Shown: positions 17,844 to 60,952 of the stretch, piece after piece
How positions within the stretch are numbered: the stretch's first letter is position 1
How the letters are laid out: every line of letters starts with the position of its first letter
Assembly: GCA_015068245.1 (NCBI GenBank)
Contig: SVKU01000001.1
Location: 124,001 to 188,000, forward strand
Reading direction: 5' to 3'
DNA: 64,000 nt
Origin: Oscillospiraceae bacterium
Lineage (GTDB): Bacteria; Bacillota; Clostridia; Oscillospirales; Oscillospiraceae
Position numbers and translations under genes: made by a program
Notes under the pieces: model-generated
The model's input: only the letters and a program-made list of their open reading frames with translations
Databases searched by the model: none
What the model was told of the DNA's origin: nothing

Positions 17844-19922
17844 TTAGATCTGGCTTGCGGTGGAGAAACCGTGCTGGATTGCAAAGTGCATGTTTGCAAC
17901 ACGGAAACAGTCACCGATGTAGTTAGTTTTCTTGGCAACGCCGTAGAACTTGGCAGCCTCAGCGGGTCTGGGTTTGGCACCGGTGGCCAAAACAACCAGA
18001 TCAGCATCTATATGACATTCGTTACCGGCCTTATCTACGTAGTTAACGCCGGTTTCGTCGATGGAGGTATATTTTACACTGGTAAGCTCATGGAAATCGG
18101 GAAGTGCTCTGTAAGCAGCCTTCAGCATTTCAACATAGTGAGCATGAGCAGCATCGGAAGCAAGCGAAGACTGACGGCACATAACAGTAACATCGTGACC
18201 GTTTTCGGCAAGATACATGCCGGTTTCAACACCGGTCTCACTGCCGCCGATAACAACGATCTTTTTGGGCAGTTCTGCTTCATGGCCGTAAGTTTCGATA
18301 GCCAGCATGGTGTTGGGGCCGTCTGCACCGGGCAGGTTGGGACGTACAAATTCAGGTCCGATTGCAACAATAAGTTCGTCGAAATCGAACTTAGCCAGCA
18401 TTTCGGGAGTAGCTTCGGTGTTCAGACGAACATCAACACCGTTCTTTGCCAGCTGTTTTGCCTGCCAGTCAATGTAATCCTTAATGGGCCACTTGAAGGA
18501 AGCATATTCTGAATGGCTCAGCTGACCGCCAAGCTTAATATCCTTTTCAAACAGGACAACGTCGTGTCCCCTCTTTGCTGCGGTAACTGCAGCCTGCATA
18601 CCGCCGGGGCCGCCGCCTACTACGCCGACCTTTTTCTTTTCGCCAACGGGCTTGACCATGCGGTCGATTTTGTCTTCCAGACCCATAACGGGGTTGACAG
18701 AGCAGAAAGAGCGATACTTGTCGGTATCGTTGGGAACGTGACATTTGTTGCAGCGGACGCAGGGAGTTACGTCCTCGCCACGGCCTTCATACAGCTTTGT
18801 GCCGTATTCGGGGTCACAGATCCATGTACGGGCAGCAGCAATAATATCACACTTCTTGTCGCGAATAGCGTTATCGCAGAAGGTGGGGTTCTGCAGACCG
18901 GCAGAAGCAGCAACAAGGATCTTACCTCCACGAGCCATAACGTCTGCCTTAACAGCAGCAGCAACGTCAAGGTTGGGGCAGGGATTTTCACGAGTAGAGG
19001 TGAATCCGGTGGGATGCTGAGGATCCTGATCGCCGTTGCGGATATGGATAACGTCGATAATTCCTTCGGCAAGACGTGCAAGCTCGATAGTATCAGCTAC
19101 AGAAGCACCGCCCTTTTCGTAACCGGAAACAAGAACTTCCAGAGGGAAGTCTTTACCAAGAGTCTGACGCAGTGCGTCAAAGAACTCAAGCATGAAACGG
19201 GTACGGTTCTTTACGGAATCGGGACCATATTCGTCCTTTCTCTGGTTGGTGATGGGGCTCCACAGCTGAGCTGCTATACCACCGCGGTAAGCATTATGTA
19301 CAGAGAAGAATTCAAAGCCAAGACTCTTAAGATCAAGAGCATTCTGAACAGAAGTGTCTATATACTCCTGCATCTGCTTCTTGGTGATGGTGTTGGCACC
19401 CTGACGACGAGCCATCATTTGCTTCATCATTTCTTCGCTCAGTTCAGGCATGTCACCACCGGGACCTCCAGGACCACCGGGACCTCCAGGTCCTCCAGGT
19501 CCACCGGGACCACCCGGTCCACCCGGACCTCCAGGACCACCGGGGCCGCCGGCAGACTCATCCTGAGTATATGAGCCTGAAACGCCGGTAACGGCAAGTG
19601 CACCGTAATAGCGCAGACCGTCGATCATCTGGCAAAGATAATTGTGAGTAGAAAGGTCGTTCATATCCATAATGGAGAAGTGGTTGGGTGTCATGCCGAT
19701 GGGACCCTTCTGGGGAGAACCATTCTCAAGATGGTTGATGTTAACAGCTGCAGCACCGTTCTTGGCACGGTTAACGATCATTGTGATCCACTTCTCAGTG
19801 GGGAAAGGTTCGGTGCCCTGAATGAAGTGGGGAGTTGCAGCTGTAGCTTCCATACGGTTCTTCATAAGAACGCCTGCTACCTGAATAGGAGAAAGCAAAT
19901 GTTCATATCTGATATTGCTCAC
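17844..19922 (-). CDS. Old Yellow Enzyme-type FMN/FeS/FAD oxidoreductase with a (GGP)10 insert
   Basis: A 692-residue protein laid out like 2,4-dienoyl-CoA reductase, trimethylamine dehydrogenase and BaiCD/BaiH. It has an FMN TIM barrel (residues 1 to about 390), a 4Fe-4S motif CVRCNKC with a further cysteine 12 residues on, and an FAD/NAD half with VGVVGGGPGGMQAA and IVVIGGSETGVE. The barrel starts LSPIQVAGVLMKNRM. The usual His-x-x-His active block reads VHNAYRGG, with Tyr for the second His. Residues 125-156 are ten Gly-Gly-Pro triplets plus Gly-Gly, inserted in the barrel. It probably reduces enone or dienoyl substrates; the substrate is unknown. A promoter lies upstream, and it diverges from the secreted beta-helix gene. 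Confidence 0.88.
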   Translation of the reverse strand: MSNIRYEHLLSPIQVAGVLMKNRMEATAATPHFIQGTEPFPTEKWITMIVNRAKNGAAAVNINHLENGSPQKGPIGMTPNHFSIMDMNDLSTHNYLCQMIDGLRYYGALAVTGVSGSYTQDESAGGPGGPGGPGGPGGPGGPGGPGGPGGPGGPGGDMPELSEEMMKQMMARRQGANTITKKQMQEYIDTSVQNALDLKSLGFEFFSVHNAYRGGIAAQLWSPITNQRKDEYGPDSVKNRTRFMLEFFDALRQTLGKDFPLEVLVSGYEKGGASVADTIELARLAEGIIDVIHIRNGDQDPQHPTGFTSTRENPCPNLDVAAAVKADVMARGGKILVAASAGLQNPTFCDNAIRDKKCDIIAAARTWICDPEYGTKLYEGRGEDVTPCVRCNKCHVPNDTDKYRSFCSVNPVMGLEDKIDRMVKPVGEKKKVGVVGGGPGGMQAAVTAAKRGHDVVLFEKDIKLGGQLSHSEYASFKWPIKDYIDWQAKQLAKNGVDVRLNTEATPEMLAKFDFDELIVAIGPEFVRPNLPGADGPNTMLAIETYGHEAELPKKIVVIGGSETGVETGMYLAENGHDVTVMCRQSSLASDAAHAHYVEMLKAAYRALPDFHELTSVKYTSIDETGVNYVDKAGNECHIDADLVVLATGAKPRPAEAAKFYGVAKKTNYIGDCFRVANMHFAIQHGFSTASQI
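19453..19550. repeat. 9-bp tandem array encoding (Gly-Gly-Pro)n
   Basis: About ten copies of a GGNCCNCCN-type 9-mer within the flavoprotein gene. Third positions vary (CCACCGGGA, CCTCCAGGT and similar), so the array has drifted at silent sites while the peptide GGP stayed the same. That suggests selection on the protein. Confidence 0.9.
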
Positions 19923-19959
19923 GGGATATCCTCCTTACATTTTATTTAGAGCCAGATAT

Positions 19960-19988
19960 ATTTTATACTTTTTCTGAACACATGTCAA
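19960..19988 (-). promoter_or_regulatory. Sigma-A promoter of the GGP flavoprotein gene
   Basis: On the minus strand, TTGACA (19988-19983) and TAAAAT (19965-19960) lie 17 bp apart. A TATAAA overlaps at 15 bp. The start codon is about 40 bases downstream, with GGAGG. Confidence 0.65.
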
Positions 19989-20104
19989 TAAAAGGCTCTG
20001 CATTAGAAGAATATTGTTGTTGAGTTTTGAAATAGTTTATCATTCTTCACAAATGATAATACGCAAAATAGGTAATAATTGCTTCAAAACTTTACCAAAA
20101 AAGT

Positions 20105-20133: not shown

Positions 20134-20136
20134 AAG

Positions 20137-20177: not shown

Positions 20178-22073
20178 ATGAAGAAAAGAGCTTTATCTCT
20201 GGCACTGGCTATCGTTATGATGCTGAGCCTTGCAGTAACTGCAAACGCTCTCACCCTCGGTTCCATTGCCGACATGGGATACAAAAAAACCGCAGAAATC
20301 GTAGTCGCTGCCGCACCCGACATCAGCGACCTGGAAGTATCCGAGTATGCTACTCTCGACAGCGACAGAGGACGCAGAAAGGTTGATATCGGCCACATTT
20401 ATGTTGGTTATGCAGTTGAAGATGGCGTTATTAATGCCGATAACTCCAACTGGATCAAATCCAACACCGAAAGCATAGTTTTTAAGAATTATGTCAGCGG
20501 CGAGGGCTTCACCGCTCTTTATGCCACCGGTAAAGGCACTAAAGCTGATGTAAGCGGTAAACTTACTCTCGTTGACGGCAGTGACGGTCAGTATGCTTCC
20601 GACTTTACCGGAACCGGTGTTGCTATCGTTGTTGACGATTATGCAAAGGTTCAAGCTCATGACCTTACCATTTACACCGAAGGCTTTGTTCGTGCTGCTG
20701 CCATCGTTTACAACGGTGCCGAAATGACAATTAAAAACAGCAGCCTTATCACCGTTGGTGCCAACCCTCTGACCGAGGCTTATGACGGTTACAAGAACAG
20801 TGCCAATACCAGCAAGATGATCTCTCCTCCCTGGGTACTTGGCATTCAGGGCGGTATCCGAACCATCAACGTATTGGGCAAAAAGCCCACTCTCAATGTT
20901 ATTGATTCTTATCTTGCTACCGGCGGATGGGGTGTTCTTTCCACCGACGGCTGCAGCCAGCCTCTTCTTAACATTGTAGATTCCACTCTTGAAGTTCTTC
21001 CCGAATCCAAGGGCGGCATGAACTCCGGCTGGGAACTGTTTGGTTATGATAAAGACAAATACGGTTCCGGCTACGGCTCCTACATTATCGGCGATTCCAC
21101 CGAACTGTTCTATGGTGTAAATATCAAGGGCGGTACTTACGGTGCTATCGGCCGTGGCGGTAAGGCTGTATATGCTTCCACCAACGGTAATATCGACCTC
21201 TACAATGCTTATGGCACCAAGATGGAAACCGTTGAAGGCAAAGGCCGGGTTTCCGTTATCGACTGTGTTTACGGTGTTATGACCCATGCAAACGAAGATA
21301 TAGCAATTTCCTATATCGACGGCACTGTTGTTAATGCAGAGGAATCCATTTTCATGTATCGTTCCAGCGGTACTGCTGATTTTGTTGCTGACGAAGCTTC
21401 CCTTAATGCAGGCAATGGAATCATTCTTCAGATGATCGATGACGACGACAGCACTGTCGGCGGCTTTAACCCCTTCAATTCTTACCTGTATGAAGATGCA
21501 GGTGTTCCCTCCAGAAGCGGAAATGAAACCGGCAAGTCCAAGAAATGCGACACTGTCAATATGACTCTCACCAATGGTGTTTATGAAGGCGACTTCTACA
21601 ACGGAACCGGCTATTACAAGCAGGCTCCCGACGCCATGAATGTCATTATCGGTGAAGGCGCAACAGTAATTGGCGACATCGCTCTGACCGAAACTTTCCA
21701 CGGTGTTCACTACTCTGAAAAAGCAGTTGAAGTTCTCGACAGCTATGGCAATGATGTTTCCTACGTATTCCTCGATGCCGATTACTATGTAACCGAGAAT
21801 GAGGCCGATGCAGAATACATCCAGCTCACCAAGTTCTCAATTAATCAGTACTTTATGCTCTGCCATCTGCTCAACAGAGTCTATTACAACGGCTATTCCA
21901 AGGCTGATGTTGTTGTTGAAGACGGCGGCATCTGGATGGTTGAAGAAGAATCCCTTATCACCTCTCTGAAGATTGAAAGAGGCGCCAAGGTCTATGGTGC
22001 TGTCAAGTACAACGCTGACGGTACCCTTACCCTGACTCCCGCAGACAAGCTTCTGGCTGCAGATTCCTACTAA
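20178..22073 (+). CDS. Secreted right-handed beta-helix-like protein
   Basis: A 631-residue protein with a signal peptide (MKKRALSLALAIVMMLSLAV, cleavage near ANA). The mature part consists of short repeated strand-turn units rich in Asn, Asp, Gly and Val, such as VDDYAKVQAHDLTIYTEG, GAEMTIKNSSLITVGA, PTLNVIDSYLATGGWGVLSTDG. This is the rhythm of pectate-lyase-like beta-helices. I see no catalytic motif. It is clearly paralogous to the protein at 59486, sharing the GWGVLSTD / GWAALSTD and PPWVLGIQGG / PPAGLFLGG turns. ATG 20178 has AGGAGTG. Likely outside the cell; the substrate or ligand is unknown. Confidence 0.72.
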   Translation: MKKRALSLALAIVMMLSLAVTANALTLGSIADMGYKKTAEIVVAAAPDISDLEVSEYATLDSDRGRRKVDIGHIYVGYAVEDGVINADNSNWIKSNTESIVFKNYVSGEGFTALYATGKGTKADVSGKLTLVDGSDGQYASDFTGTGVAIVVDDYAKVQAHDLTIYTEGFVRAAAIVYNGAEMTIKNSSLITVGANPLTEAYDGYKNSANTSKMISPPWVLGIQGGIRTINVLGKKPTLNVIDSYLATGGWGVLSTDGCSQPLLNIVDSTLEVLPESKGGMNSGWELFGYDKDKYGSGYGSYIIGDSTELFYGVNIKGGTYGAIGRGGKAVYASTNGNIDLYNAYGTKMETVEGKGRVSVIDCVYGVMTHANEDIAISYIDGTVVNAEESIFMYRSSGTADFVADEASLNAGNGIILQMIDDDDSTVGGFNPFNSYLYEDAGVPSRSGNETGKSKKCDTVNMTLTNGVYEGDFYNGTGYYKQAPDAMNVIIGEGATVIGDIALTETFHGVHYSEKAVEVLDSYGNDVSYVFLDADYYVTENEADAEYIQLTKFSINQYFMLCHLLNRVYYNGYSKADVVVEDGGIWMVEEESLITSLKIERGAKVYGAVKYNADGTLTLTPADKLLAADSY

Positions 22074-22084
22074 AAGACAAAATA

Positions 22085-22320: not shown

Positions 22321-24030
22321 TTACTTATTCAGATATCTTTCGTATGCAGCTTCATATGCAGCCTGAATATCTGCCATCTTCATGCTTTCGCAGGTAGCAA
22401 TATATTCTTCCCATGCTGCGTCAGTCAGTTCGTCTTCCTTGCAGAGCCAACGGAAAACAGTGCTTTCAACATAGGTCTCAAGGTCGGCGATCTGGCTGGA
22501 CAGAGTTTCGCTTTCTTCGGCAGTCAGACGAACTGCGGAAGGCAGGCTCAGATAAATTGCAGATTCGGTAGAAGTATCGCTTACCCAGAGGTCAGCAGCC
22601 TTCTTCTGCATTTCATCAGCAACATAGTAAGTAATGTTGATATATCTCAGACCAAAGTCACCGTCAGAGGTGTAAACACTCTTGTTGCCAAAGCCGAGAT
22701 CACTTCTTGCTTTGTAGAAATCGGTGATGAACTTCTGACCATCTTCAACATAATAGGTTTCGCCTTCGTTCCAACCGAAGTTGCAGATATCAGCACCTTC
22801 GTCGCTGTAGCACCAGTCGAAGAATTTCATTGCGCCTTCAATATCTTCACAAGCAGTAGTGATGGCCATACCGCCGCCGGCACTGACACGGGAAGTAACT
22901 GCGCTGACAATAGCTTTCTGGCCGGGACCGTAGCCTTCACGGCGAACAATGGGACAGGGTTCAAGGTTAATGCCGTATCTTTCAAAGTTTACGGAAATAT
23001 GCTCGCCCATTGCGTCCTTGGTAGCAAGAAGTCCCTGATTGAACTTGGGATTCTCCATACCCGCATTAACGGTCCAGTCGGGATCGATCCATCCCTTATC
23101 GAAGCAGTCGATAAACAGTTCGATATACTCTCTGGTTTCGGGAGTAGTGGGACCAAACACAAACTCTTCGGTCTCTTTATCGATAAGGAAACCTGTGGTC
23201 AGGCTTGCACCCATAGCGTTCATAAACTGACCGTTCATAATTGCGCCGGCAGAGTTGGTATCGATGGGATACTGAACACCATTGTTCTTCATGGCCTCAG
23301 CAACAACCAGCCACTCATTGATGGTTGTCGGCATTTCAAGACCGGTAGCAGCAAGATAGTCAGCGTTTACACAAAGACCGAGGCTGGGTTTCTCATCTTC
23401 ATTTGCAATGGTAAGGAATGCGCCGATATGGCCGCCGTCTGTTACAATGACCTTACGGTTAGCTTCATCAGCAAGACCATAATAAGCATAGTTGGGGGCG
23501 TATTCAATGTATTCCATAAGGTCAACGTAAATATCGTCCTCAATGGCCTTGTCATAACCGCCGGTGTAGGCAGAACCTTCCATGGAGATCATGTTTTCAC
23601 ATACAATATCAGTGAAATCTCCGGAAGCTACCATCAGATTAAACTTCTCGGTGCCAACCTGTTCGCCTGGTTCCTGGAATACAAAGTCAACATTGAGTTC
23701 TTCCTGAACCTTAGTCCAGAATACGTTAACTTCATCGTCACGACCGGGCATGCTGGAACCCTGGCCGCCACGAAGAGCATAGAAGAAAGAGAATTCCGCG
23801 CCATCAGGGTACAACGGCAGCTCATAAGCTACCTTTTCATAAGCGGGAGCTTCTTCTTCAGGTTCAACCTCTTCAGCAGGGGGAGCTTCTTCTGCTTCAG
23901 ATTCTACTTCAGGAGCCGATTCTGCAGGAGTGCTTTCTTCTGCTGCAGGTTCATCAGTTTTTGATGCGCAGCCTGCAATGAAAGTAAGCATCATCAGTGC
24001 TGCCAAAAGCAGTGCCAACAGTTTTTTCAT
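22321..24030 (-). CDS. Extracellular solute-binding lipoprotein (family 1), orphan
   Basis: A 569-residue substrate-binding protein with lipobox FIAGC (Cys near residue 21) followed by an acidic Glu/Ala/Pro-rich linker to about residue 65. The binding-protein fold shows EKFNLMVASGDFTDIV near 127-142, VNADYLAATGLEMPTTINEW near 217-236 and late motifs FDWCYSDEGADICNFGWNEG. It resembles the larger LplA-type binding proteins for oligosaccharides. No ABC permease or ATPase is nearby. The protein at 55174 is a paralogue. A weak TTGACT promoter lies about 60-90 bases upstream. The ligand is unknown. Confidence 0.85.
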   Translation of the reverse strand: MKKLLALLLAALMMLTFIAGCASKTDEPAAEESTPAESAPEVESEAEEAPPAEEVEPEEEAPAYEKVAYELPLYPDGAEFSFFYALRGGQGSSMPGRDDEVNVFWTKVQEELNVDFVFQEPGEQVGTEKFNLMVASGDFTDIVCENMISMEGSAYTGGYDKAIEDDIYVDLMEYIEYAPNYAYYGLADEANRKVIVTDGGHIGAFLTIANEDEKPSLGLCVNADYLAATGLEMPTTINEWLVVAEAMKNNGVQYPIDTNSAGAIMNGQFMNAMGASLTTGFLIDKETEEFVFGPTTPETREYIELFIDCFDKGWIDPDWTVNAGMENPKFNQGLLATKDAMGEHISVNFERYGINLEPCPIVRREGYGPGQKAIVSAVTSRVSAGGGMAITTACEDIEGAMKFFDWCYSDEGADICNFGWNEGETYYVEDGQKFITDFYKARSDLGFGNKSVYTSDGDFGLRYINITYYVADEMQKKAADLWVSDTSTESAIYLSLPSAVRLTAEESETLSSQIADLETYVESTVFRWLCKEDELTDAAWEEYIATCESMKMADIQAAYEAAYERYLNK

Positions 24031-24200: not shown

Positions 24201-25538
24201 TCAGCGTTTATTGGATCTGATCCAGATTTTCTGTTTTTCCGCCTCTTTGATCAATGAATCTCTGAAATCAGGGTGCGCAATGCTGATAATACCTTCGGCT
24301 CTTTCCCATGTAGTCAAACCTTCAAGGTTTACTATCCCCTGTTCTGTAACAATATAGTATGACTGACTTCTCGGAACAGTAACAATATCAGCACCAAAAT
24401 GGGCTTTAACATTTGAGTGTTTGTTACCTTTAGAGTCCGTATAATAGGATTTCATGCATATAAATGCTTTACCACCGCTGGACATAGAAGCACCTGTCAG
24501 AAAGTCCAGCTGACCTCCTGTACCGCTTATATGTCTTGTTCCCGAGCTTTCGGAAGAAATCTGACCATACAGGTCAACGGAAATGCAGCTATTGATGGAA
24601 ACCATATTATCGTGCTTGGCAATGGTACCGGGATCATTGACATATTCAAGCGGACACCCAATAACTCCGGGATTCTCATTGACCCAGTCATACAGGTCAC
24701 GAGAGCCAAATACAATTCCAGTAACGCCTTTATTCCTGTGCAGCTGCTTTTTCTTATTAGTGAGTTTACCCGCCTTGAAAAGCTCCAAATAAGCGTCTGA
24801 ACAAAGCTCGGTATGCATTCCCAGATCTTTGATATCTGTGTCAGCAATCAAGGTACCAACAGCGTTGGGCATGCTTCCTATGCCTAATTGAAGTGTTGCA
24901 CCGTCGACAATATATGGTATAATACTCTTGGCAATAGCATTGTCATCATCTGATGGAGGTGCTGATTTCATCTCCATTATGGGAGCGTGCTCGCCTTCAA
25001 CAATACAGTCAACATCAGAAATATGAATACACTCATCAAACCCACCGAAAATTCTGGGCAAGTTTTCATTGACCTCAACAATAACGTAGTCGGCATGTTC
25101 CAGTACACCATATGCTCCGCCGATTGAGCATGACAGGTTGAAGTATCCATGTTTATCCATAGGTGTTACAGAGACCATTGCCACATTTACAGTAAGGAAA
25201 TGCCTGTAATAAGGCACATAGTGTCGGAAAATCATGGGTATCGGGTTACAAAGCCCTTTATCGCAAAGGCTGCGTTCATAGGAAGAACAGTGCCAGCTGT
25301 TATAAATGAAGTGTTCCCTTTCCGGGTCGCACTCAACGACCTGAATTGGGCCAAAAATAAGGTTGCCACGCAATTTGACGTCAAACAGCTCTTCCTTGCG
25401 TTTTGCAAGGGCTGCATCTAGCAATTCAGGAAATCCGAGAGTGATAGTGTAATCCACCCAGTCTCCTGATTTTACTATTTTAACTGCTTCTTCAGGGGTT
25501 TTAAGTTTTTTCTTATACTCGCTGATCAGATCAAACAT
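24201..25538 (-). CDS. Acetyl-CoA hydrolase/transferase family CoA-transferase (butyryl- or 4-hydroxybutyrate-CoA type)
   Basis: A 445-residue family I-like CoA transferase. The catalytic glutamate lies in GMHTELCSDAYLELF near residue 245. LQLGIGSMPNAV near 216 and the CoA-binding GTGGQLDFLTGAS near 345 are clear. The length and motifs fit butyryl-CoA:acetate or 4-hydroxybutyrate CoA-transferase. That reaction moves CoA from a fermentation acyl-CoA to acetate. No butyrate pathway genes are adjacent, so the acyl substrate is undetermined. It appears monocistronic. Confidence 0.88.
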   Translation of the reverse strand: MFDLISEYKKKLKTPEEAVKIVKSGDWVDYTITLGFPELLDAALAKRKEELFDVKLRGNLIFGPIQVVECDPEREHFIYNSWHCSSYERSLCDKGLCNPIPMIFRHYVPYYRHFLTVNVAMVSVTPMDKHGYFNLSCSIGGAYGVLEHADYVIVEVNENLPRIFGGFDECIHISDVDCIVEGEHAPIMEMKSAPPSDDDNAIAKSIIPYIVDGATLQLGIGSMPNAVGTLIADTDIKDLGMHTELCSDAYLELFKAGKLTNKKKQLHRNKGVTGIVFGSRDLYDWVNENPGVIGCPLEYVNDPGTIAKHDNMVSINSCISVDLYGQISSESSGTRHISGTGGQLDFLTGASMSSGGKAFICMKSYYTDSKGNKHSNVKAHFGADIVTVPRSQSYYIVTEQGIVNLEGLTTWERAEGIISIAHPDFRDSLIKEAEKQKIWIRSNKR

Positions 25539-29982: not shown

Positions 29983-30001
29983 ATATAGTTCTCCTTTCAG
30001 C

Positions 30002-30265
30002 AAAAAAGCTCGTCTCAAAGACTAACTTTGAGACGAGCATAAATTCTTATTACCCGCGGTACCACTCAAATTGCAACAATCAATTGTTACCACCTTCAGG
30101 CTCCAACAAGCCCTATGCATTAACGCAGCAGTCACGGAAGGCGCCTACATAAATTTCGGACCTCCAGCTCGGAAGTGATGGGAACCTGAAATGTTCTTTA
30201 TCGGGATCACACCATCCCCGACTCTCTTAAAAACAACAATTTCGTCCGTCTTCGTCATCGCTTTT
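30002..30265 (-). promoter_or_regulatory. T-box riboswitch upstream of the HTH-cupin-ligase gene
   Basis: The minus-strand leader has the conserved T-box TGGTACCGCGG (30064-30054). A Stem I has an AGAGAG motif and the distal hairpin TCGGG / CCCGA. The terminator is GCTCGTCTCAAAG / CTTTGAGACGAGC followed by TTTTTTG (30038-30002). Uncharged tRNA should favour the antiterminator. The UGGU bulge predicts a tRNA with discriminator A. By my hand folding the specifier region reads AGGTTCC, which would allow UUC (Phe), but this is uncertain. Confidence 0.9.
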
Positions 30266-30284
30266 CTATTAAATTGTTGTGATA

Positions 30285-30313
30285 ATATTAGCATTTAAGC
30301 ATTAATATGTCAA
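30285..30313 (-). promoter_or_regulatory. Sigma-A promoter of the ligase T-box transcript
   Basis: On the minus strand, TTGACA (30313-30308) and TAATAT (30290-30285), 17 bp apart, just upstream of Stem I. Confidence 0.75.
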
Positions 30314-30355
30314 CAGTGATTTTGCACACAAAAAGAAATTATCATTAACTTCAAA

Positions 30356-32848: not shown

Positions 32849-32850
32849 TT

Positions 32851-34275: not shown

Positions 34276-34339
34276 TGTAAATTTCCTTTCCTGGTTGGAT
34301 TCATTATTACTGATTAACGAAATACTTCAATGCAAAAAA

Positions 34340-52862: not shown

Positions 52863-53633
52863 TTAGTAGCTCCAGGTCTCCTCAAGGCTCTTGAAAGGCT
52901 CGGGAATGCGGGGCATTTCGACCTGCAGACGAGTTGCGCTGTAATCGGTGAAGCGACCGGGTTCGTCCTTTTCAACGCTTACTTTACCGCCCATAGCGGG
53001 AGAAGCACCCTTGAGGGGTTCTTTCTTTTCTTCCTTCTTCTCTTCGGGAGGAGGACCCATGGGCATTCTGGGCTTGGTCCAGTCGCCGGTGTCGCCGCCG
53101 GTAGACATATCCATGCAGATAAGCAGACGCAGGAACTTCCATTCGCCGTCTTCGTAAATAAAGTCAGCACCGTACTTTTCCCACATCCAGGCTACGTCCT
53201 GAACATCTCTGCCGGTATCGGCGCGAAGTGCAAAACCCGGAGTATACCAAAGACCCTTGGCACTCATGCCGTCTTCAGCGATTTCAATAACGCTGGAGCA
53301 AAGCACATGAGTGGGCATTTCGGAAAGACGACGTCCGTCGATCTCTTCGAGCTTTTCGGCATACTCGGGATGGATCTCAAGAATCTGCTGTTTCTGGATT
53401 GCAGCCATTTCATACTTATCGTCGCCGGCGTACATGGGAAGAAGTTTATGCATACCGATCCAACGACCAAAGTTCTGAGACCAAACAACTTCATCTGCAC
53501 GCTTCTGAGACCAGAGAGTTGTGACTTCTTCTCTATTCATATCAGCTGCATGATAATAAGTATGGCGAGACATGAGGTTTTCAATCTCGGTGATAGCTAA
53601 AGCTTTATGGGCTCTCAGTTCAAAATCAGTCAT
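52863..53633 (-). CDS. SnoaL/NTF2-like protein 3 of a tandem triplet
   Basis: A 256-residue protein. The cone-shaped NTF2 fold covers about residues 1-172: LAITEIENLMSRHTYYHAAD, then TLWSQ, and SVIEIAEDGMSAKGLWYTPGF with WEKYGADFIYEDGEWKFLRLL. After that comes a Pro/Glu/Lys-rich linker (near 188-210, MPMGPPPEEKKEE) and a tail ending FKSLEETWSY. BaiE-type dehydratases and polyketide cyclases share this fold; the reaction here is unknown. Its ATG abuts the stop of the preceding gene, which places its ribosome site (GGAGGG) inside that gene. Confidence 0.82.
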   Translation of the reverse strand: MTDFELRAHKALAITEIENLMSRHTYYHAADMNREEVTTLWSQKRADEVVWSQNFGRWIGMHKLLPMYAGDDKYEMAAIQKQQILEIHPEYAEKLEEIDGRRLSEMPTHVLCSSVIEIAEDGMSAKGLWYTPGFALRADTGRDVQDVAWMWEKYGADFIYEDGEWKFLRLLICMDMSTGGDTGDWTKPRMPMGPPPEEKKEEKKEPLKGASPAMGGKVSVEKDEPGRFTDYSATRLQVEMPRIPEPFKSLEETWSY

Positions 53634-54299
53634 TTATTTGCCCTCCTTGTTGAGAAACGGTTCGGGACCGTAACTTACGGTCTCACTGAATGTTGCATAG
53701 GGCTTGGGGAACGGAGGATAATTAGGCCAACCGAACTTGGGATCGGTAATGCCGGGAATACGCAGGACATTGGGATCTGGTTCCTGCTCGCCTCCGGGAG
53801 GAGGACCTCCGGGACCTTTCTTGGGGTCGGACAGCTTTGTTCCGAATTCCATGGAGAAGTCGGTGCCTACAAAGAAGTGCCAGATCTTCCATTCGCCATC
53901 TTCTTTAATGAAGTCGATAGCGTAGCGTTCATGCATCCAGTTTACTCCGCCGTCAGGGCCACTGCCGTAACCGGGAGTGTACCACATGGCCTGAGCAGTC
54001 TCACCATCGTCTGCAATTTCAATAAGAGGAGTGGTAAGGGTGTGCATAAACAGTTCGCCGGGTTTGGGTTCTGCGCCAATGTGAGGCTCAACATAGTATT
54101 TGATAAGGGTCTCACGGCCCATCTGATAACCGCCGTTATTACCCCAGGAAACGTCATCACGTTTGCTCCAGATATCTTCAAACTCTTCGGGATGCATGCC
54201 CCAGGAGTGATAGTAAGCATGACGACCCATGACATTTTTGATCATGAAGGCATCGTATGCTCTTGTTGCCTTTTCTTCAGCAGTAAAAATTTTGCTCAT
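53634..54299 (-). CDS. SnoaL/NTF2-like protein 2 of a tandem triplet
   Basis: A 221-residue protein. The NTF2-like domain spans about residues 15-148: IKNVMGRHAYYHSWGMHPEEF, MHTLTTPLIEIADDGETAQAMWYTPG and RYAIDFIKEDGEWKIWHFFVG. A Pro/Gly-rich linker follows (near 160-175, KKGPGGPPPGG) and then a tail YATFSETVSY at 201-210. Charged His/Asp/Tyr residues that could act as a general base are present (HAYYH). It lies 14 bases after protein 1 and directly abuts protein 3. Confidence 0.82.
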   Translation of the reverse strand: MSKIFTAEEKATRAYDAFMIKNVMGRHAYYHSWGMHPEEFEDIWSKRDDVSWGNNGGYQMGRETLIKYYVEPHIGAEPKPGELFMHTLTTPLIEIADDGETAQAMWYTPGYGSGPDGGVNWMHERYAIDFIKEDGEWKIWHFFVGTDFSMEFGTKLSDPKKGPGGPPPGGEQEPDPNVLRIPGITDPKFGWPNYPPFPKPYATFSETVSYGPEPFLNKEGK

Positions 54300-54313: not shown

Positions 54314-55024
54314 TTAATAGCTGAATGTTTCGGCAAAGGTCTTATACTCAACAGGCATTTCAGGCTTTCTGAGAGAAGCTGTTTCTTTGGAAAGAGCAGT
54401 AAAGAATACGCCTTCTTCAGAATAAGCGGGCTGTTCAATGCCGGATACAGAGATATTACCCTTGACGTTGTTGAATTTCTGACCAACAGGAGTTACGAAA
54501 TCGGTAAAGAACTGCAGATGCCACAGTTTCCAAACACCGTTTTCCTTAACAAAGTCAGCACCGTAACGACCCATGTTCCAGTAAGCAGCAAGACCGTCAT
54601 CGGTAACAACAGTCTGCTCACCGTAGCAATACCAAACACCTTTGGCAGTTTCACGGTCATATGCAAGCTCAATAAGAGGAGTGGTTGCATTCAGAACTTC
54701 ATTAAATCCTGCACCAAATGTTTCTGCTTCGGACAGAGAGCCAAGTTCCTTTGGATATCTTTCTCTCATAAGAGCGTTTGCCTTGGCAGTAATGGCGTTC
54801 TGATAGTCAACAAACCAGCTCTTAACAGCTTCGGTTCCAACATATTTGCCGTCATTCAGAGTAAGGGTGGGCTCGTTTTCCTTGCACCAAAGGGTTTCCC
54901 AAGCGTCGGAATAACGACGATAGGACATAAGGAAAACCAGCTTGCCCATGATGTTTTCAACGGCACGCAGATCTTCAAGTCTCTCAATTTTCTCGAGAGG
55001 CGAGAATTCGGGATGCTTGTACAA
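54314..55024 (-). CDS. SnoaL/NTF2-like protein 1 of a tandem triplet
   Basis: A 236-residue protein, first gene of the operon. It has the NTF2-like pattern LEDLRAVENIMGKLVFLMSY, TTPLIELAYDRETAKGVWYCYG and RYGADFVKENGVWKLWHLQFF. The tail ends YKTFAETFSY. Near residues 28-36 it reads KLVFLMSYRR where the other two have a His-x-Tyr-Tyr-His block, so it may be a non-catalytic partner. The start is TTG 55024, with GGAGGAAG 6-9 bases upstream. Confidence 0.8.
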   Translation of the reverse strand: MYKHPEFSPLEKIERLEDLRAVENIMGKLVFLMSYRRYSDAWETLWCKENEPTLTLNDGKYVGTEAVKSWFVDYQNAITAKANALMRERYPKELGSLSEAETFGAGFNEVLNATTPLIELAYDRETAKGVWYCYGEQTVVTDDGLAAYWNMGRYGADFVKENGVWKLWHLQFFTDFVTPVGQKFNNVKGNISVSGIEQPAYSEEGVFFTALSKETASLRKPEMPVEYKTFAETFSY

Positions 55025-55173: not shown

Positions 55174-56865
55174 TTATTTTGCCAGATATCTGTCAAGAGC
55201 ACCCTGACGGATGGTCATGATCTCTTCATAACCAAGTTCCATGATTGTGTTCACATATTCATCCCAAGTTGCTTCAATGTCAACTTCACCCATGATGAAC
55301 TTCAGAGCCATCTCTTCCTGATAGGTTTCAATGTCAGTCTGGAGAGTTGCAACTTCGGTGGATTCCTCAGGGCTGAGAGAATAGTTGGGAACAGTCTTGT
55401 CATAGCTGTTGAAAGTGCTGATCCAAATATCAACAGCTTCCTTCTGTGCTTCATCATAGGTCAGCTGATTAACAGAAAGGTCAACCAGTCCGGGAAGACC
55501 GGGGTTGATGAAGGCGCTCTGGGCACCCTGATAACCGAGCTTATGGTTCATAATGAAATCGGTAAACATGGGAGTGCCGTCTTCCTGATATTCAAATGTG
55601 GTGCCTTCAATACCGAAGTTGCCCAGGATACGGCCTTCTTCGGTAAACAGATAGTCGATCATGCCAAGAGCAAGAGGAATGTTTTCTTCTTCGCAGTTGG
55701 TGGAGATGGACAGAGCGTACTTGTCGGAAACCTTGCTGGGGATCTTGCAGGTGTCGAGTACCTGACCTTCTTCCAGAAGCATCTGAGGCATAGCTCTCAG
55801 TTCAAAATCGGGATTGGAATGGTTTTTGCGATAGGTGGATATGGAGACAACGTCCTCATTATACATACCTGCCAGATCCTGATATACGCAGGCCTCAGGA
55901 GGCTTGGTCTGGCTGTAATCGTTGGAAAGGAAATCGTGATAGATATAACCCTTTTCGTACCATTCATTCATCTTGAGGAAGTAATTCTTTGCATTTTCGG
56001 TAATGGAATAGTCAACAAGATCACCGTTTTCCATAACGGTTCCGCTTTCATAAGCAGTTGCAAGGAACTCAAGTCTGGGAGATGCGGCCAGCAGAACGAT
56101 GGGCTGTTCAAGTTCAAGTTCAGTCTTGAAAGCTTCAAGAACTGCGTCATATTCTTCCAGAGTTACAGGCATATCCATACCGATCTTGTCGAGGAAGTCC
56201 TGACGGCACCAGAAGCCCTGGTCCTGATAGAAATAGTCTGAATAAAGTCCGTAGATATTACCGAGCTGACCTTCATCATCAAGCATATATCGACGAATGT
56301 TTTCGTCATCACCGATAGCATTGCGGAAAGAAGGCATGCATTCTTCGACATAAGGCCAGATGTCTATAACAACTTCTTCAGCAATAGCCTGAGTTATACC
56401 ACCGGTATAAACCTTGTTGGCTCCCTGCATAATATCGGTCATATCGCCTGCTGCAACCATCAGGTTAAACTTTTCGGACTGAGTCTCGGTATCAACTACG
56501 GTTATATCGAGATGTACACCGGTGATCTCTTCAAGTTTTGCAAAGGTTTCACATTCAGTGGGGCTGCAGAAAGTGGACAGGAAAGGAGGCCATGCCTGCC
56601 AATAAGTCAGGGTGGTCACTTCGTCACAAAGAGGATAGCTCAGGGGCTCGAGAGGTACATATCCCTCCGGTTCGGCAGGTTCCTCAACTTCTGTTTCTTC
56701 AGCAGGAGCTTCTTCAGGAGTTTCAGCAGGAGCTTCAGCTTCTTCTGCCGGTGCTTCTTCCACAACTTCGGATTCTACGGGTTCGGCTTCTTTCGAGCCG
56801 CAGCCGGCAGTAAGAGCAAACAGCATAACAAGCGCAAGAAGCATACATATTAATCTTTTACTCAT
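55174..56865 (-). CDS. Extracellular solute-binding lipoprotein (family 1), orphan paralogue
   Basis: A 563-residue lipoprotein with lipobox LTAGC (Cys near residue 22) and an acidic Glu/Pro/Ala linker to about residue 68. The core shows SEKFNLMVAAGDMTDIM near 129-145, then YTGGITQAIAEEVVIDI and a TWDEYVNTIMELGY...LDRYLAK tail (abbreviated). These align with the protein at 22321, so the two are paralogues. No permease or ATPase is adjacent. AAAGGAG precedes ATG 56865. It lies between the SnoaL-like operon and the divergent metallophosphoesterase gene. Confidence 0.85.
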   Translation of the reverse strand: MSKRLICMLLALVMLFALTAGCGSKEAEPVESEVVEEAPAEEAEAPAETPEEAPAEETEVEEPAEPEGYVPLEPLSYPLCDEVTTLTYWQAWPPFLSTFCSPTECETFAKLEEITGVHLDITVVDTETQSEKFNLMVAAGDMTDIMQGANKVYTGGITQAIAEEVVIDIWPYVEECMPSFRNAIGDDENIRRYMLDDEGQLGNIYGLYSDYFYQDQGFWCRQDFLDKIGMDMPVTLEEYDAVLEAFKTELELEQPIVLLAASPRLEFLATAYESGTVMENGDLVDYSITENAKNYFLKMNEWYEKGYIYHDFLSNDYSQTKPPEACVYQDLAGMYNEDVVSISTYRKNHSNPDFELRAMPQMLLEEGQVLDTCKIPSKVSDKYALSISTNCEEENIPLALGMIDYLFTEEGRILGNFGIEGTTFEYQEDGTPMFTDFIMNHKLGYQGAQSAFINPGLPGLVDLSVNQLTYDEAQKEAVDIWISTFNSYDKTVPNYSLSPEESTEVATLQTDIETYQEEMALKFIMGEVDIEATWDEYVNTIMELGYEEIMTIRQGALDRYLAK

Positions 56866-57152: not shown

Positions 57153-57190
57153 TAAAATTGCACATTTGTACAAAGAATGGAGGAAATAGA

Positions 57191-59281
57191 ATGAAGTGTA
57201 CAAAGCGTTTCGTGAGCATCATGCTGGTTCTCTGCATGGCTCTCACACTGCTCCCCATGAGCGTTCTCGCCACTTATACTTACGCTGATAACGGCTTCAA
57301 ACCCGTTGAGGTATATGGCGAAAACTCTCTGTTCATTTCTGACATCCATGCCGAAGGCGAAACCAATGCCAGACTTGAACAGCTGCTCAAGCTTGCTGAC
57401 CCCAACAAGGAAATCGCTATCATTTCCGTTGGCGGCGACTACGAAGCCGGTATGGATTACCGTCTTGGCGACGTAACCGACTCCCGTTCCGGCGCAGCTT
57501 GTATTGTATCCACCAACAAGCTGATCGACGAATACTATGGCTCCTCTGAAAAGTGGGGATGCGAAGATCCCGACTGCAACAACTGCCATGTTTCCATCGT
57601 CTACACCAAGGGCAACCACGAATCCGGCAAAGCCGACTGGAAAGGTTATGGCAAAAGCACCGACGCATATCTGAATGCAGAAGCTGCAGCTCTGAACGAT
57701 CAGATCAATGCTGACTTCCTCGCTTTCACCGAATGGCCCGACTCCGGTCACGTTGCAACCGTTTATGCCGACGAAACCAAGACCACCGTTGTTTACTATC
57801 TGTATGCAATGGGTTGGCAGTGCAACGGCGGCGACAAGTCCATGCAGTTCAGCTACGACGAAAGCGTCGGTCTGATGAAGGACTTTGAAAAGTGGTATGC
57901 CGAAACCGGCAACGATGGCAGCATTCCCGTTTTCATCGTTTCCCACAGCCCCATTCACTACTACAATGATCGTCGTACCCCCTATCATGCAGCTAACGCT
58001 ATCGAAACTTTCAACAAGTATCCGAACCTCGTTTTCTGCTGGGGCCACAACCACACCGAACGCGATCCCCTTTACACCACCGTTCTTGAATCCGGTGACC
58101 TTATGACCGTACAGCTTGACGACGGCACCGTCGTTGAAAAGGAGATCCTCTTCTCCTACACTGGTCTTGGCTCCATCCGTGCCAACGGCCACATGAACGA
58201 AACCGGCTTCCTTGCTCAGTATAAGGGCATTGGCGAAGCTGACCTGACCGCCAAGAGTGTTGAACTGACTTTCTACTTCCTGGAAAACAAGGAAAACATG
58301 AAGGTTCTTGAAAGCAACGGCAACCCCCTTGTTGACGAAGACACCACCATCAACTTCTATGATCCTGCTGTTATCTCCAGAGCCGCTGTTGAAGTTGCTG
58401 CTCCCGTAACCGGCGCTGCTCCCGCTGCCGAAGTTGAATTCAGCGATCGTTTCAGCGCTGCTGTTAATTGGTCTCCCGCTGTTGAAGGCGAATTCAAGGC
58501 CGGCGTTGCTTACACTGCTGAAGTCGTTCTGACTGCTGAAGAAGGCTACAGCTTTGCTGAAGCTCCCGAATTCAATCTGAACGGTGCTAAGGCTAGCGAT
58601 GTCAAGGTTGAAGGCAACACTGCTATTCTGACCTTTGAATTCGACAGAACTCTGTACTACTCCGACGTTGCTCTCGATTCTGCATACTATAACGCCATCG
58701 GTGCTCTTACTGAGATCGGCGTAGTTAACGGTTATGGCGATGGTACCTTTGGTGTCGCTGATAAGATCACCGAAGCTCACTTTGATCTCATGATCAGCCG
58801 CTCCGGCGCTACCGGTGTTGAAATGGTTGCCGGCATGACTCGTGGTGAGGCAGCAAAGGCTATTTATGAAGCCCTTGGTCTGGCACCCGTTATCGTCCCC
58901 AGAGAAGGCAACTGCATCGTCACTTTCTCCGACGGCAGAGCTTTTGAAACAAAGATTGGCGAAGACTTCGTGTTCTTCTTCCAGTGCAACGCTCCCGGCG
59001 ACATGGGCGCTCCCGCTGAAGGTGAAGAAGGCGCCGGCATCACTGTTTCCGAAGGTAATGTTACCTATTCCAATGTTGGTGTAGGCGGACCCTTCAAGTA
59101 TCCCACCAGCGAGAAGGTAATCATCTCCGGTTTCACCGGTGATATCACTGTAACCATCACTGAAGCTGCTACCAATATGGGTGCCACTTATTCCATCTAC
59201 ACCGAAGAGGCTGACATAGCTGCTGCTATTGCTTTTGCTGAAAAGATGGCTGCCCAGATGGCTGCAAATCCCATGCATTAA
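57191..59281 (+). CDS. Secreted metallophosphoesterase with SLH-like module
   Basis: A 696-residue secreted protein with a signal peptide in residues 1-27. The calcineurin-like phosphoesterase domain covers about 38-300: FISDIHAEG, GGDYEAG, YTKGNHESG, VSHSPIHYY and CWGHNHTERD supply the two-metal ligands. Residues about 400-480 look like an Ig-type beta module. About 485-570 resemble SLH repeats (YYSDVALDSAYYNAIGAL, VVNGYGDGTFG, MTRGEAAKAIYEALGL). A Val/Thr-rich beta domain ends the chain. Codons are strongly C-biased, suggesting high expression. ATG 57191 has GGAGG. The substrate is unknown; nucleotides or phosphorylated polymers are possible. Confidence 0.85.
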   Translation: MKCTKRFVSIMLVLCMALTLLPMSVLATYTYADNGFKPVEVYGENSLFISDIHAEGETNARLEQLLKLADPNKEIAIISVGGDYEAGMDYRLGDVTDSRSGAACIVSTNKLIDEYYGSSEKWGCEDPDCNNCHVSIVYTKGNHESGKADWKGYGKSTDAYLNAEAAALNDQINADFLAFTEWPDSGHVATVYADETKTTVVYYLYAMGWQCNGGDKSMQFSYDESVGLMKDFEKWYAETGNDGSIPVFIVSHSPIHYYNDRRTPYHAANAIETFNKYPNLVFCWGHNHTERDPLYTTVLESGDLMTVQLDDGTVVEKEILFSYTGLGSIRANGHMNETGFLAQYKGIGEADLTAKSVELTFYFLENKENMKVLESNGNPLVDEDTTINFYDPAVISRAAVEVAAPVTGAAPAAEVEFSDRFSAAVNWSPAVEGEFKAGVAYTAEVVLTAEEGYSFAEAPEFNLNGAKASDVKVEGNTAILTFEFDRTLYYSDVALDSAYYNAIGALTEIGVVNGYGDGTFGVADKITEAHFDLMISRSGATGVEMVAGMTRGEAAKAIYEALGLAPVIVPREGNCIVTFSDGRAFETKIGEDFVFFFQCNAPGDMGAPAEGEEGAGITVSEGNVTYSNVGVGGPFKYPTSEKVIISGFTGDITVTITEAATNMGATYSIYTEEADIAAAIAFAEKMAAQMAANPMH

Positions 59282-59341
59282 GGTAACAAAGACCCTACCA
59301 AAACGCTTTCTAAGTCTTAACCTTTAAACGATAATAGTTTT

Positions 59342-59369
59342 AGCTCCCGCTGCAATAGCAGCGGGAGCT
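59342..59369 (+). terminator. Terminator after the metallophosphoesterase gene
   Basis: Perfect 12-bp repeat AGCTCCCGCTGC / GCAGCGGGAGCT, loop AATA, then TTCTGCG. Confidence 0.75.
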
Positions 59370-59485
59370 TTCTGCGTGCAATCAGCAAGTAAATTCATAA
59401 AAATGTTTGCCTTTAGTATACGAAAGATGTAAAATGAATAAGGAATGAAGCAAAAACCAATGAAAATAATGAAAGGAAAAATAAC

Positions 59486-60952
59486 ATGAAAGAAATACTT
59501 ACAAAAGCTCTCCCGCCTTATGGCATGCCATTGAAAGATGAGATCGGCGATAAGCCTGAAAAAGTTATGATGGGCTTCCCCGGAATGGGTCCCGGCCCGG
59601 GTGGCCCCGGTGGCCCCGGAGGACCTGGCGGACCCGGTGGTCCTTCAAATGATCCTACTGACGACCCCATGTTCCCTCGTTCTTTCAAGGCTATACCATC
59701 CTATGTCATAGAAGACAATAAGGTTACTGATTTCCCCACTGTTCATGCTCTGGAAGGTGAAATTGGCGATACAGAAGCTAAAGGAATCAAGTTCACCACT
59801 GAGGAAAAGTTCATTAACGGCATCATTGTCAAAGGCAGCAGCAAATACACCATTTCTGATGCTTATTTCAAGCTCGATGGACAGGGTGTCAACGACTTTG
59901 ATGGTATCGGTTCCGCAGTCATGGTAACCGACGATGCCGAACTCACTGTTAAAGACAGCTATATCGAAACCAACGGCGTTATTCGCCCCTGTACTGCCTG
60001 TGCAGGCAAAGCTACTCTTATCGTTGATAACTGTAAGGTTTACGGCAACAGTGGTCCCCTGCCCGACTACTACGACAAGGAAAATCCCATCAAGGGACCC
60101 GGTATGATGGAACCTCCTGCAGGTCTGTTCCTGGGCGGTACCTGTCGTACTCACCTTTCTGTTGGCACTACCAAGACTTATTATAAGAACACCTATATTG
60201 AAGCCGAAGGCTGGGCAGCACTTTCCACCGATAATGGACGTGATTTGTATCTGCAAGCAGATAACTGCGATGTAATTGTTCGTAATGTTGGTTATGGCGT
60301 TTATGCTGACGGCGGCTGTAATGTAGTGCTGAATGACTGCCGCATTAAAGTAGCTACCCACGCCGGTATCCTCGCCGGAGATTTTACCGCTGTATTCAAA
60401 GGCTGTACCGTCACATCCGGCCGATATGACTTTATGTGCCACGATCTTTCAGGCGGTGCTTCTTCCGCTGCTCCTCTTGAGATACGCAACTGCAGCTGTT
60501 ATGCGGAGGACGAAGTTATCCGCATTAAGAGCCACAATGTCCATATCGACATTGCCGACTCCAAACTGAAATCCCCAAATTACATTGTACACGCTTTCGT
60601 GAACGACGACTCTGACGGCGGAGTTCTTCCCGAAGATGCCATACCTTATGGAAATAAACTGTATGTTACGGGATCTGAATTGGAAGGTGATATCGTTAAT
60701 GAGGATATTCGCTGCATGGCAATAATTCTCAAGGATTCAAAAGTTAAAGGCGCTATTGTAGGTTCATACCTTCAGATTGAAAATTCCGAATGGTTTGCAA
60801 CGAAAGATTCAGTCATTGCTCTTGTAAATTGCAAAGCTGTCGACGGAATTGACGCTGCTGACGGTGTTACCATCAAGGCGATCGCTTCCGAAGGAACCAC
60901 CCTTTCCGGTGAATATGATCTTCCTTCAGGCGGCAAACTTATTGTTGAATAA
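59486..60952 (+). CDS. Beta-helix-like protein with Gly-Gly-Pro tract, no signal peptide
   Basis: A 488-residue protein. Residues 1-55 are MKEILTKALPPYG followed by a Gly/Pro tract (PGMGPGPGG, then repeated GGP to about residue 53). There is no hydrophobic signal. The rest is a repeated strand-turn architecture paralogous to the secreted protein at 20178 (AVMVTDDAELTVKDSYIETNG, PPAGLFLGGTCRTHLSVG, GWAALSTDNGRDLYLQADN). A cysteine-containing stretch, IRPCTACAGKATL, lies near residue 170. AAAGGAAAAATAAC precedes ATG 59486. Location is predicted cytoplasmic unless exported by an unusual route. The function is unknown. Confidence 0.72.
   Translation: MKEILTKALPPYGMPLKDEIGDKPEKVMMGFPGMGPGPGGPGGPGGPGGPGGPSNDPTDDPMFPRSFKAIPSYVIEDNKVTDFPTVHALEGEIGDTEAKGIKFTTEEKFINGIIVKGSSKYTISDAYFKLDGQGVNDFDGIGSAVMVTDDAELTVKDSYIETNGVIRPCTACAGKATLIVDNCKVYGNSGPLPDYYDKENPIKGPGMMEPPAGLFLGGTCRTHLSVGTTKTYYKNTYIEAEGWAALSTDNGRDLYLQADNCDVIVRNVGYGVYADGGCNVVLNDCRIKVATHAGILAGDFTAVFKGCTVTSGRYDFMCHDLSGGASSAAPLEIRNCSCYAEDEVIRIKSHNVHIDIADSKLKSPNYIVHAFVNDDSDGGVLPEDAIPYGNKLYVTGSELEGDIVNEDIRCMAIILKDSKVKGAIVGSYLQIENSEWFATKDSVIALVNCKAVDGIDAADGVTIKAIASEGTTLSGEYDLPSGGKLIVE
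59590..59644. repeat. Short 9-bp tandem array encoding Gly-Gly-Pro
   Basis: About five copies of a GGNGGNCCN-type 9-mer at the 5' end of the beta-helix gene. It is the same peptide unit as in the flavoprotein at 17844, on the opposite strand and 40 kb away. Confidence 0.85.

What the first reader, a model, noticed from the sequence alone, without database searches (positions are those of the whole stretch)
17844..60952. Duplicated accessory module: beta-helix protein + orphan solute-binding lipoprotein + small-molecule enzymes + Gly-Gly-Pro tracts
Locus A (17.8-24.0 kb) holds a GGP-flavoprotein, a secreted beta-helix protein and an orphan solute-binding lipoprotein. Locus B (52.9-61.0 kb) holds three SnoaL-like proteins, a paralogous orphan lipoprotein, a secreted phosphoesterase and a paralogous beta-helix protein with a GGP tract. 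The paralogy of both pairs is visible directly (SEKFNLMVA[AS]GD[MF]TDI-type block in the lipoproteins; GW[GA][VA]LSTD in the beta-helices). Recurrence of the same three ingredients in two places argues for one functional system split over two loci.
Basis: partly seen in the sequence, partly recalled or inferred. Interest (0 to 1): 0.75.

Follow-up and report, generated by a model that had tools for sequence, protein, structure and literature searches.

The report
Genome-wide small-molecule uptake and cleavage arsenal
The two loci are two samples of gene families spread over one bacterial genome, likely from a ruminant gut: 47 predicted binding lipoproteins that would share a single import channel, and recurring three-gene sets predicted to work together in breaking down small, probably plant-derived, molecules.

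Summary
The genes are there, but this is not a two-locus duplication. The same 2.43 Mb genome holds 47 near-full-length copies of the "orphan" lipoprotein, 22 beta-helix genes, 42 OYE-domain and 17 SnoaL_4 matches, so the recurrence in 64 kb is about what abundance gives. Beta-helix, OYE and lipoprotein genes are not clustered above chance.

Three better-supported facts replace it. (1) The genome has one LplB-type permease, with YtcP but no binding protein beside it; close LplB relatives occur in 8 of the 9 lipoprotein-bearing genomes and in none of 51 others. This points to many binding proteins sharing one ABC permease. (2) The three SnoaL genes are one of 22 alpha-beta-gamma triads found in three genera, always in that order and co-diverging. 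Gamma keeps the histidine aligned with H97 of the diarylpropane lyase LdpA, its nearest solved structure; 21 of 22 alphas lack it. I predict a hetero-oligomeric LdpA-like lyase or dehydratase. (3) Gly-Gly-Pro tracts sit in unrelated proteins. Abundant tracts, beta-helices and SnoaL genes mark the same 3 of 60 genomes. The tracts' role is unknown.

Permease sharing, complex formation and the aromatic substrates are inferred, not shown.

The parts
54314..55024 (-). SnoaL_4 protein, alpha of the triad; Leu (L108) where LdpA has its catalytic His
   Evidence: PF13577 43.5 bits; alpha clade 95/85; 1 of 22 alphas has His in that column
53634..54299 (-). SnoaL_4 protein, beta of the triad; His (H86) in the LdpA-H97 column
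   Evidence: PF13577 48.4 bits; beta clade 99/99; His in 18 of 22 betas; printed alignment to LdpA chains
52863..53633 (-). SnoaL_4 protein, gamma of the triad; predicted catalytic subunit with H24, H28, E36, H109
   Evidence: PF13577 25.1 bits; gamma clade 100/98; these four residues in 22 of 22; model pLDDT 88.6 nearest to LdpA
55174..56865 (-). Orphan solute-binding lipoprotein B (LplA/YtcQ-like family), upstream of alpha on the same strand
   Evidence: 47 near-full-length paralogues in the genome; sub-cut-off SBP_bac_1 and DUF3502 matches
22321..24030 (-). Orphan solute-binding lipoprotein A
   Evidence: SBP_bac_1 32.4 bits; 31% to B in the genome search, rank 42 of 59
17844..19922 (-). 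OYE/FadH-type Fe-S flavoenzyme with a (GGP)10 tract at 19461-19550
   Evidence: Oxidored_FMN 59.9 bits and Pyr_redox_2 91.2 bits; tract; nearest solved relative NCR 6qkg
20178..22073 (+). Beta-helix A, predicted secreted, no GGP tract
   Evidence: Genome search with beta-helix B, E=3.7e-10; signal-like N-terminus
59486..60952 (+). Beta-helix B, no signal peptide, GGP tract near the N-terminus (59594-59638) modelled as disordered
   Evidence: Beta_helix 41.7 bits; model pLDDT 88.9, residues 30-66 under 50
57188..59281 (+). Calcineurin-like phosphoesterase with SLH domain; neighbour, no tie to the system shown
   Evidence: Metallophos 37.9 bits, SLH 31.7 bits

Best explanation
The two loci are two samples of a genome-wide set of expanded gene families that likely lets this probably gut-dwelling Oscillospiraceae bacterium capture many small plant-derived molecules with its 47 predicted lipoproteins, import them through a single shared LplB-YtcP permease, and break them down with predicted three-subunit LdpA-like SnoaL enzymes followed by flavoenzyme reductases.

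Shown here: the copy numbers, the single LplB gene and its lack of a neighbouring binding protein, the co-occurrence of this permease type with the lipoprotein family, the 22 triads with fixed order and correlated divergence, the histidine pattern, and the GGP tracts in unrelated proteins. Inferred: that the lipoproteins dock on that permease, that alpha, beta and gamma form one complex with gamma (and perhaps beta) catalytic, that the substrates are aromatic dimers or similar plant compounds, and that OYE and FAD_binding_2 enzymes act on the products. The GGP tract is most likely a flexible linker or tether; its role is the least certain step.
For: Copy numbers: 47 near-full-length lipoproteins, 27 beta-helix matches, 17 SnoaL_4, 42 Oxidored_FMN.
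Hub: one LplB match in G000 and one in G033; LplB at 49% identity or more in 8 genomes, all of them among the 9 of 60 with the lipoprotein family (Fisher p=3.5e-9); permease pair without a lipoprotein of this family beside it in 7 of 8 stretches, and the ordinary LplB-YtcP-SBP order in G020; none of 47 lipoproteins lies within 1.5 kb of a BPD_transp_1 match.
Triad: 22 complete triads in three genera, order alpha-beta-gamma in 22 of 22; three supported clades; correlated divergence r=0.59-0.80, 0 of 5000 permutations.
Confidence: 0.5

Rival explanations
1. The lipoproteins are sensors or surface scavengers rather than transport subunits: they bind ligands and feed regulators, and the LplB-YtcP pair serves only a few of them.
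For: AraC-type regulators lie within 500 bp of lipoproteins in 2 pairs in G000 and 5 in G033 stretches; a histidine-kinase-like and a response-regulator-like gene sit between two lipoproteins in L013 (by sequence reading). PMC5994714 names sensing as an alternative for orphan binding proteins (passages). G049 has the family without LplB.
Against: Co-occurrence with one LplB clade in 8 of 9 genomes, and an ordinary operon in G020.
Confidence: 0.25
2. The three SnoaL proteins are separate homo-oligomeric enzymes for successive steps of a pathway, kept together as an operon, not subunits of one complex.
For: All three have the fold and share D/W/H positions (D157, W165, D175 columns); 18 of 22 betas keep the catalytic-column His. 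Single SnoaL genes exist. BaiE, a related dehydratase, is a trimer of one chain (passage of PMC13101464).
Against: Order never changes in 22 triads; the three diverge together; 21 of 22 alphas lack the catalytic-column His, which suits a non-catalytic partner.
Confidence: 0.3
3. The set is a bile-acid or steroid dehydroxylation system of the Bai type: SnoaL proteins as BaiE-like dehydratases, OYE proteins as BaiCD-like reductases.
Against: Both OYE scores are far below the cut-offs of 825 and 750; LdpA fits gamma better.
Confidence: 0.1
4. One reading: loci A and B are one functional system split over two places.
For: Beta-helix, SnoaL and GGP tracts are abundant in the same 3 of 60 genomes; OYE and beta-helix genes are neighbours in several places.
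Against: No positional clustering above chance. A and B members are distant paralogues. Abundance alone predicts the recurrence.
Confidence: 0.05

Closest known systems
LdpA (and PcfL), cofactorless diarylpropane lyases of sphingomonads, NTF2 superfamily (PDB 8abt, 8abu, 8abv, 8abw)
   Same: Nearest solved relative of gamma by sequence profile and fold; catalytic-column His kept in gamma 22 of 22 and beta 18 of 22.
   Different: About 20% identity; three paralogous genes in fixed order instead of one; alpha mostly without the His; anaerobic-type host; activity unknown.
Orphan solute-binding-protein expansions (Bug/TctC family of Bordetella and Rhodoplanes)
   Same: Many binding proteins, few membrane components: up to 181 genes against at most four in Bordetella, 434 SBP genes in Rhodoplanes (passages and abstract of PMC5994714).
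   Different: Those are tripartite tricarboxylate transporters; here it is an ABC (LplB-YtcP) system with lipoproteins.
LplA/LplB/YtcP-type ABC importers (name recalled; Pfam BPD_transp_1, SBP_bac_1, DUF3502)
   Same: Permease pair and binding-protein family; ordinary operon in relative G020.
   Different: 47 near-full-length binding proteins against one LplB, none adjacent.
Bai bile-acid dehydroxylation enzymes (BaiE dehydratase, BaiCD reductase)
   Same: SnoaL/NTF2-fold dehydratase plus OYE-type flavoenzyme.
   Different: OYE A scores about a third of the BaiCD cut-off; BaiE ranks below LdpA for gamma.

Membership tests
LdpA-type NTF2-fold lyases | NTF2/SnoaL fold with LdpA as nearest solved structure | tested here: met
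LdpA-type NTF2-fold lyases | Catalytic-column histidine (H97 of NaLdpA; changed to Gln in 8abu) | tested here: met
   Gamma 22 of 22, beta 18 of 22, alpha 1 of 22; column set by printed alignments, in which 8abu shows Q. So met for gamma and mostly beta, not for alpha
LdpA-type NTF2-fold lyases | Cofactorless dehydration/deformylation of an aromatic dimer | not testable with these tools
   Needs an enzyme assay
LplA/LplB/YtcP ABC importer | LplB-type and YtcP-type permease pair | tested here: met
   L113:4386-5372 and 3472-4365 (-); BPD_transp_1 47.5 bits over cut-off for the first, 18.5 bits below cut-off for the second as a whole protein; both similar to the G020 pair
LplA/LplB/YtcP ABC importer | Binding protein in the same operon | tested here: not met
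   No family lipoprotein beside the pair in G000, G033 and five others; present in G020
LplA/LplB/YtcP ABC importer | Associated ATPase | not tested
   A MalK-like ATPase lies in another ABC locus (L111); no link to this permease tested
Bug/TctC (TTT) binding-protein expansion | Binding proteins of the TctC family | tested here: not met
   The only Pfam matches of lipoproteins A and B at E<=0.1 are SBP_bac_1 and DUF3502
BaiCD | NCBIfam NF041087 score at or above 825 bits | tested here: not met
   278.9 bits
Bilirubin reductase (long form) | NCBIfam NF045599 score at or above 750 bits | tested here: not met
   283.5 bits
Right-handed beta-helix proteins | Pfam Beta_helix above cut-off and a beta-helix-like model | tested here: met
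   Beta-helix B: 41.7 against 25.9 bits; mostly-strand model pLDDT 88.9; weak Foldseek matches to beta-helix lyases such as FdlA (TM about 0.3-0.4). Beta-helix A had no Pfam match

The most novel reading that the evidence does not exclude
The (Gly-Gly-Pro)n tract is a lineage-specific sorting tag that gathers unrelated catabolic enzymes (OYE, FAD_binding_2, SDR-type, amidohydrolase, esterase-type, flavodoxin-type) with cytosolic GGP-tagged beta-helix proteins into one soluble assembly, fed by a one-permease, fifty-lipoprotein importer and served by asymmetric alpha-beta-gamma SnoaL lyases.
Probability: 0.12. Interest if true: 0.85.

Novelty: new variant of a known kind. Interest (0 to 1): 0.6.

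Why it matters
If the hub model holds, one ABC permease would be served by about fifty binding proteins, which makes the old question of what orphan binding proteins do directly testable by removing a single gene. If the triad is one complex, it would be a three-gene, hetero-oligomeric enzyme in a fold where the related dehydratase BaiE is a trimer of one chain (passage), with one subunit lacking the catalytic-column histidine. Its nearest solved relative acts on lignin-type aromatic dimers, which would suggest an anaerobic route for such compounds in the ruminant gut. The GGP tracts, shared by unrelated proteins in one lineage, have no explanation yet.

Tried and rejected
Two-locus duplication: rejected on copy numbers, distant paralogy and random-placement tests.

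OYE beside beta-helix as a fixed module: neighbours within 500 bp occur (window A and L021 in G000; 7 pairs in G033 stretches, which were chosen around such hits), and beta-helix genes lie near the OYE in L090, L091, L092 and, 7 kb off, L100 of 21 named loci, but orientation varies and the genome-wide test in G000 gives no excess.

SnoaL near lipoprotein: suggestive only. 11 of 17 SnoaL hits within 6 kb (21 of 1000 shuffles reach it); by triads 4 of 5 within 5 kb (46 of 2000) but 2 of 5 within 1 kb (239 of 2000); lipoproteins within 600 bp of a SnoaL hit 3 of 47 (115 of 2000). None is corrected for the number of tests. The nulls used only contigs whose length or span I knew.

GGP tract only in cytosolic proteins: not so for the beta-helix family in the stretches held, where tract and signal peptide are unrelated (with signal 5 tract, 3 no tract; without 13 and 13; p=0.69). 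Of the 22 tract ORFs on contigs C1-C27 none reaches the hydropathy cut-off that 58 of 58 control lipoproteins reach, but two are fragments and several starts are uncertain.

Shared C-terminal ETxSY motif: my pattern found it in 14 of 22 alpha, 1 of 22 beta and 2 of 22 gamma ends, so I make no claim.

Peptide-level selection on the tracts: adjacent 9-base units differ in 129 of 153 pairs, all at third codon positions, but I had selected peptide-pure tracts, so this is only consistent with selection.

Literature: no paper held all the terms of 'SnoaL' + 'heterotrimer', 'old yellow enzyme' + 'gut bacteria' + 'SnoaL', or 'shared permease' + three others; 'Gly-Gly-Pro' + three others gave one listing on E. 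coli collagen-like proteins; two searches listed nothing to the point. These searches are narrow and the library is partial, so I do not claim that any of this is unpublished.

A scan of genome contigs with beta-helix B found no relative. No PDB sequence matched its profile.
Full report
Check of the observation. All named genes are in the window at the stated coordinates. Beta-helix B carries the GGP tract and has no signal peptide; beta-helix A has a signal peptide and no tract.

The two-locus idea. The window is G000:C34:124001-188000 of a 2,428,919-base genome in 43 contigs. Searches of that genome gave 59 matches to lipoprotein B, of which 47 cover 430 or more residues (my count), 27 matches to beta-helix B, of which I count 22 as genes, 17 SnoaL_4 matches at E<=0.01 and 42 Oxidored_FMN matches. 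In 64 kb one expects 1.34 lipoproteins, 0.58 beta-helices and 1.11 OYE genes. Random placement shows no excess of beta-helix, OYE and lipoprotein genes near each other. Lipoproteins A and B align only in the signal peptide by BLASTP, and neither A gene ranks near its B partner.

One permease for many lipoproteins. The own genome has 22 BPD_transp_1 matches; none of the 47 lipoproteins lies within 1.5 kb of one. The pair at C36 is LplB-like and YtcP-like (names recalled); no lipoprotein of the family lies beside it, and an alpha/beta-hydrolase-like protein rich in GGP is upstream. A search of 60 genomes with this LplB at E<=1e-12 found one match in G000 and one in G033 (72%). Matches at 49% identity or more occur in 8 genomes (G000, G033, G011, G002, G007, G042, G006, G020). 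The lipoprotein family at E<=1e-15 occurs in these 8 and in G049: 8 of 9 against 0 of 51, Fisher p=3.5e-9, with a line drawn after seeing the list and no correction for kinship; LplB-type genes at lower identity occur in many of the 60. The lipoprotein counts for G000 and G033 are lower bounds, as only 23 candidates each were scored (70 and 117 first-look candidates). In 7 of 8 stretches the permease pair has no lipoprotein of this family beside it (in G006 one side ends about 0.5 kb past LplB at the contig end); in G020 the order is LplB-YtcP-SBP. The simple reading is that an ordinary operon gave rise to scattered binding proteins around a single permease. That they dock on it is inferred.

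SnoaL triads. The tree of 37 SnoaL proteins (38 collected; one 534-aa protein left out by a length filter; the three of L009 were not yet in the set) has three supported clades, alpha 95/85 (12 rows), beta 99/99 (9) and gamma 100/98 (9), each with one window gene; 7 rows fall outside. Profiles built from them and run on the own, G033 and G030 stretches held at that point found 22 complete triads: 5 in G000, 4 in G030, 13 in G033 (the split by genome is my count). The order is alpha-beta-gamma in 22 of 22; in one (L044, second set) alpha is on the opposite strand. The stretches were chosen around family hits, so this is not a genome-wide rate. Incomplete or weak sets exist too: L059 (no beta), L123 and L050 (at contig ends), L116, L122, L128 and single genes. 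Pairwise identities within the three groups correlate (r=0.59, 0.77, 0.80; 0 of 5000 permutations reach each), so the sets diverge together; the nearest triad agrees in all three proteins for 9 of 22 and in at least two for 16 of 22. The window's nearest triad is L119 in G033, at 48, 61 and 67%. At E<=0.001 SnoaL_4 was found in 7 of 60 genomes: own 16, G033 41, G030 12, four others one each.

Neighbours. Within 500 bp in the G000 stretches, FAD_binding_2 and OYE genes lie beside lipoproteins in 8 and 7 pairs. One or the other lies beside a complete-triad gene in L009, L014, L118 and L126, and an OYE gene beside the weak set of L116. A lipoprotein lies next to alpha in the window, L025, L050, L056, L054 and L129, next to weak alpha-like genes in L122 and L128, and next to gamma in L124. 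This fits cleavage or dehydration followed by reduction, but the clustering tests do not prove it.

GGP tracts. The DNA pattern for (GGP)3 gave 143 overlapping matches in the own genome, 139 in G033, 15 in G030, 1 each in G011 and G022, and 0 in the other 55 of 60. The listing runs through C27 and breaks off in C28. On C1-C27 I count 22 tracts: 6 in beta-helix-type proteins (one, C12, below Pfam's cut-off), 4 OYE, 2 FAD_binding_2-type, 2 amidohydrolase-type, 1 flavodoxin-type (sub-cut-off), 1 SDR-type, 1 polysaccharide deacetylase, 1 BD-FAE-type hydrolase, 2 small unassigned proteins and 2 contig-end fragments, one with a sub-cut-off DinB match (several labels rest on sequence reading or cluster membership alone). 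Tract position varies: N-terminal, internal, C-terminal. In beta-helix B it is modelled as disordered. Among the 27 closest homologues of beta-helix B, 21 have a Gly/Pro(/Met)-rich run near the N-terminus, of differing sequence and length, while only 12 of the 120 listed homologues have a pure (GGP)3; composition rather than exact repeat seems kept. Several contigs (C2, C3, C8, C28) end in such tracts, so the assembly may miss some.

Who carries this. G033 matches by four contig lengths the MAG RGIG4454, an Oscillospiraceae bacterium from roe deer omasum (JAFUFT01). Pure (GGP)3 tracts in the same OYE subfamily occur in 6 of 21 named loci, from RGIG4454, Red_deer_4_mag_125, SUG1319 and RUG12379. 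The origin of the window's own genome is not given; gut or rumen is inferred from kin.

Beta-helix. The family has conserved polar residues (such as R221, H223, W243, D249, Y270, D275, H319, K348, N373, D375), so a ligand-binding or enzymatic role is as likely as a scaffold. The best structural matches are weak (FdlA fucoidan lyase, TM about 0.3-0.4), and no PDB sequence matched its profile.

Verdict. What lies beneath is a lineage-specific expansion with three testable oddities: a many-to-one importer, SnoaL triads and GGP tracts. Each is a variant of something known, and none is yet shown to work as proposed.

Noticed in passing
window 27715-34589 (-): A T-box leader (34360-34589) stands before a gene set with two AMP-binding proteins, one fused to a xylose-isomerase-like TIM barrel and one to HTH and cupin domains.
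   Followed up: no
L113:6170-7708 (G000 C36): An alpha/beta-hydrolase-like protein rich in Gly-Gly-Pro lies just upstream of the single LplB-YtcP permease pair.
   Followed up: no
L054:2377-3981 (G033 C61): A 534-aa SnoaL protein with a GGP run, about twice the usual length, perhaps a fusion.
   Followed up: no
window 24201-25538 (-): CoA-transferase next to lipoprotein A; 533.8 bits to the butyryl-CoA:acetate CoA-transferase model, below its cut-off of 674.8.
   Followed up: no
L119 about 4243-5927 (G033 C41): Transposase-like genes beside the triad closest to the window's, by sequence reading.
   Followed up: no
P0192, P0208, P0210, P0211, P0212: Beta-helix relatives whose N-termini look like signal peptides, two of them named from Duganella and Novosphingobium; some have a GGP-rich stretch after it.
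   Followed up: partly
G000 contigs C2, C3, C8, C28: Contig ends fall inside GGP tracts, so the repeat DNA seems to break the assembly.
   Followed up: partly
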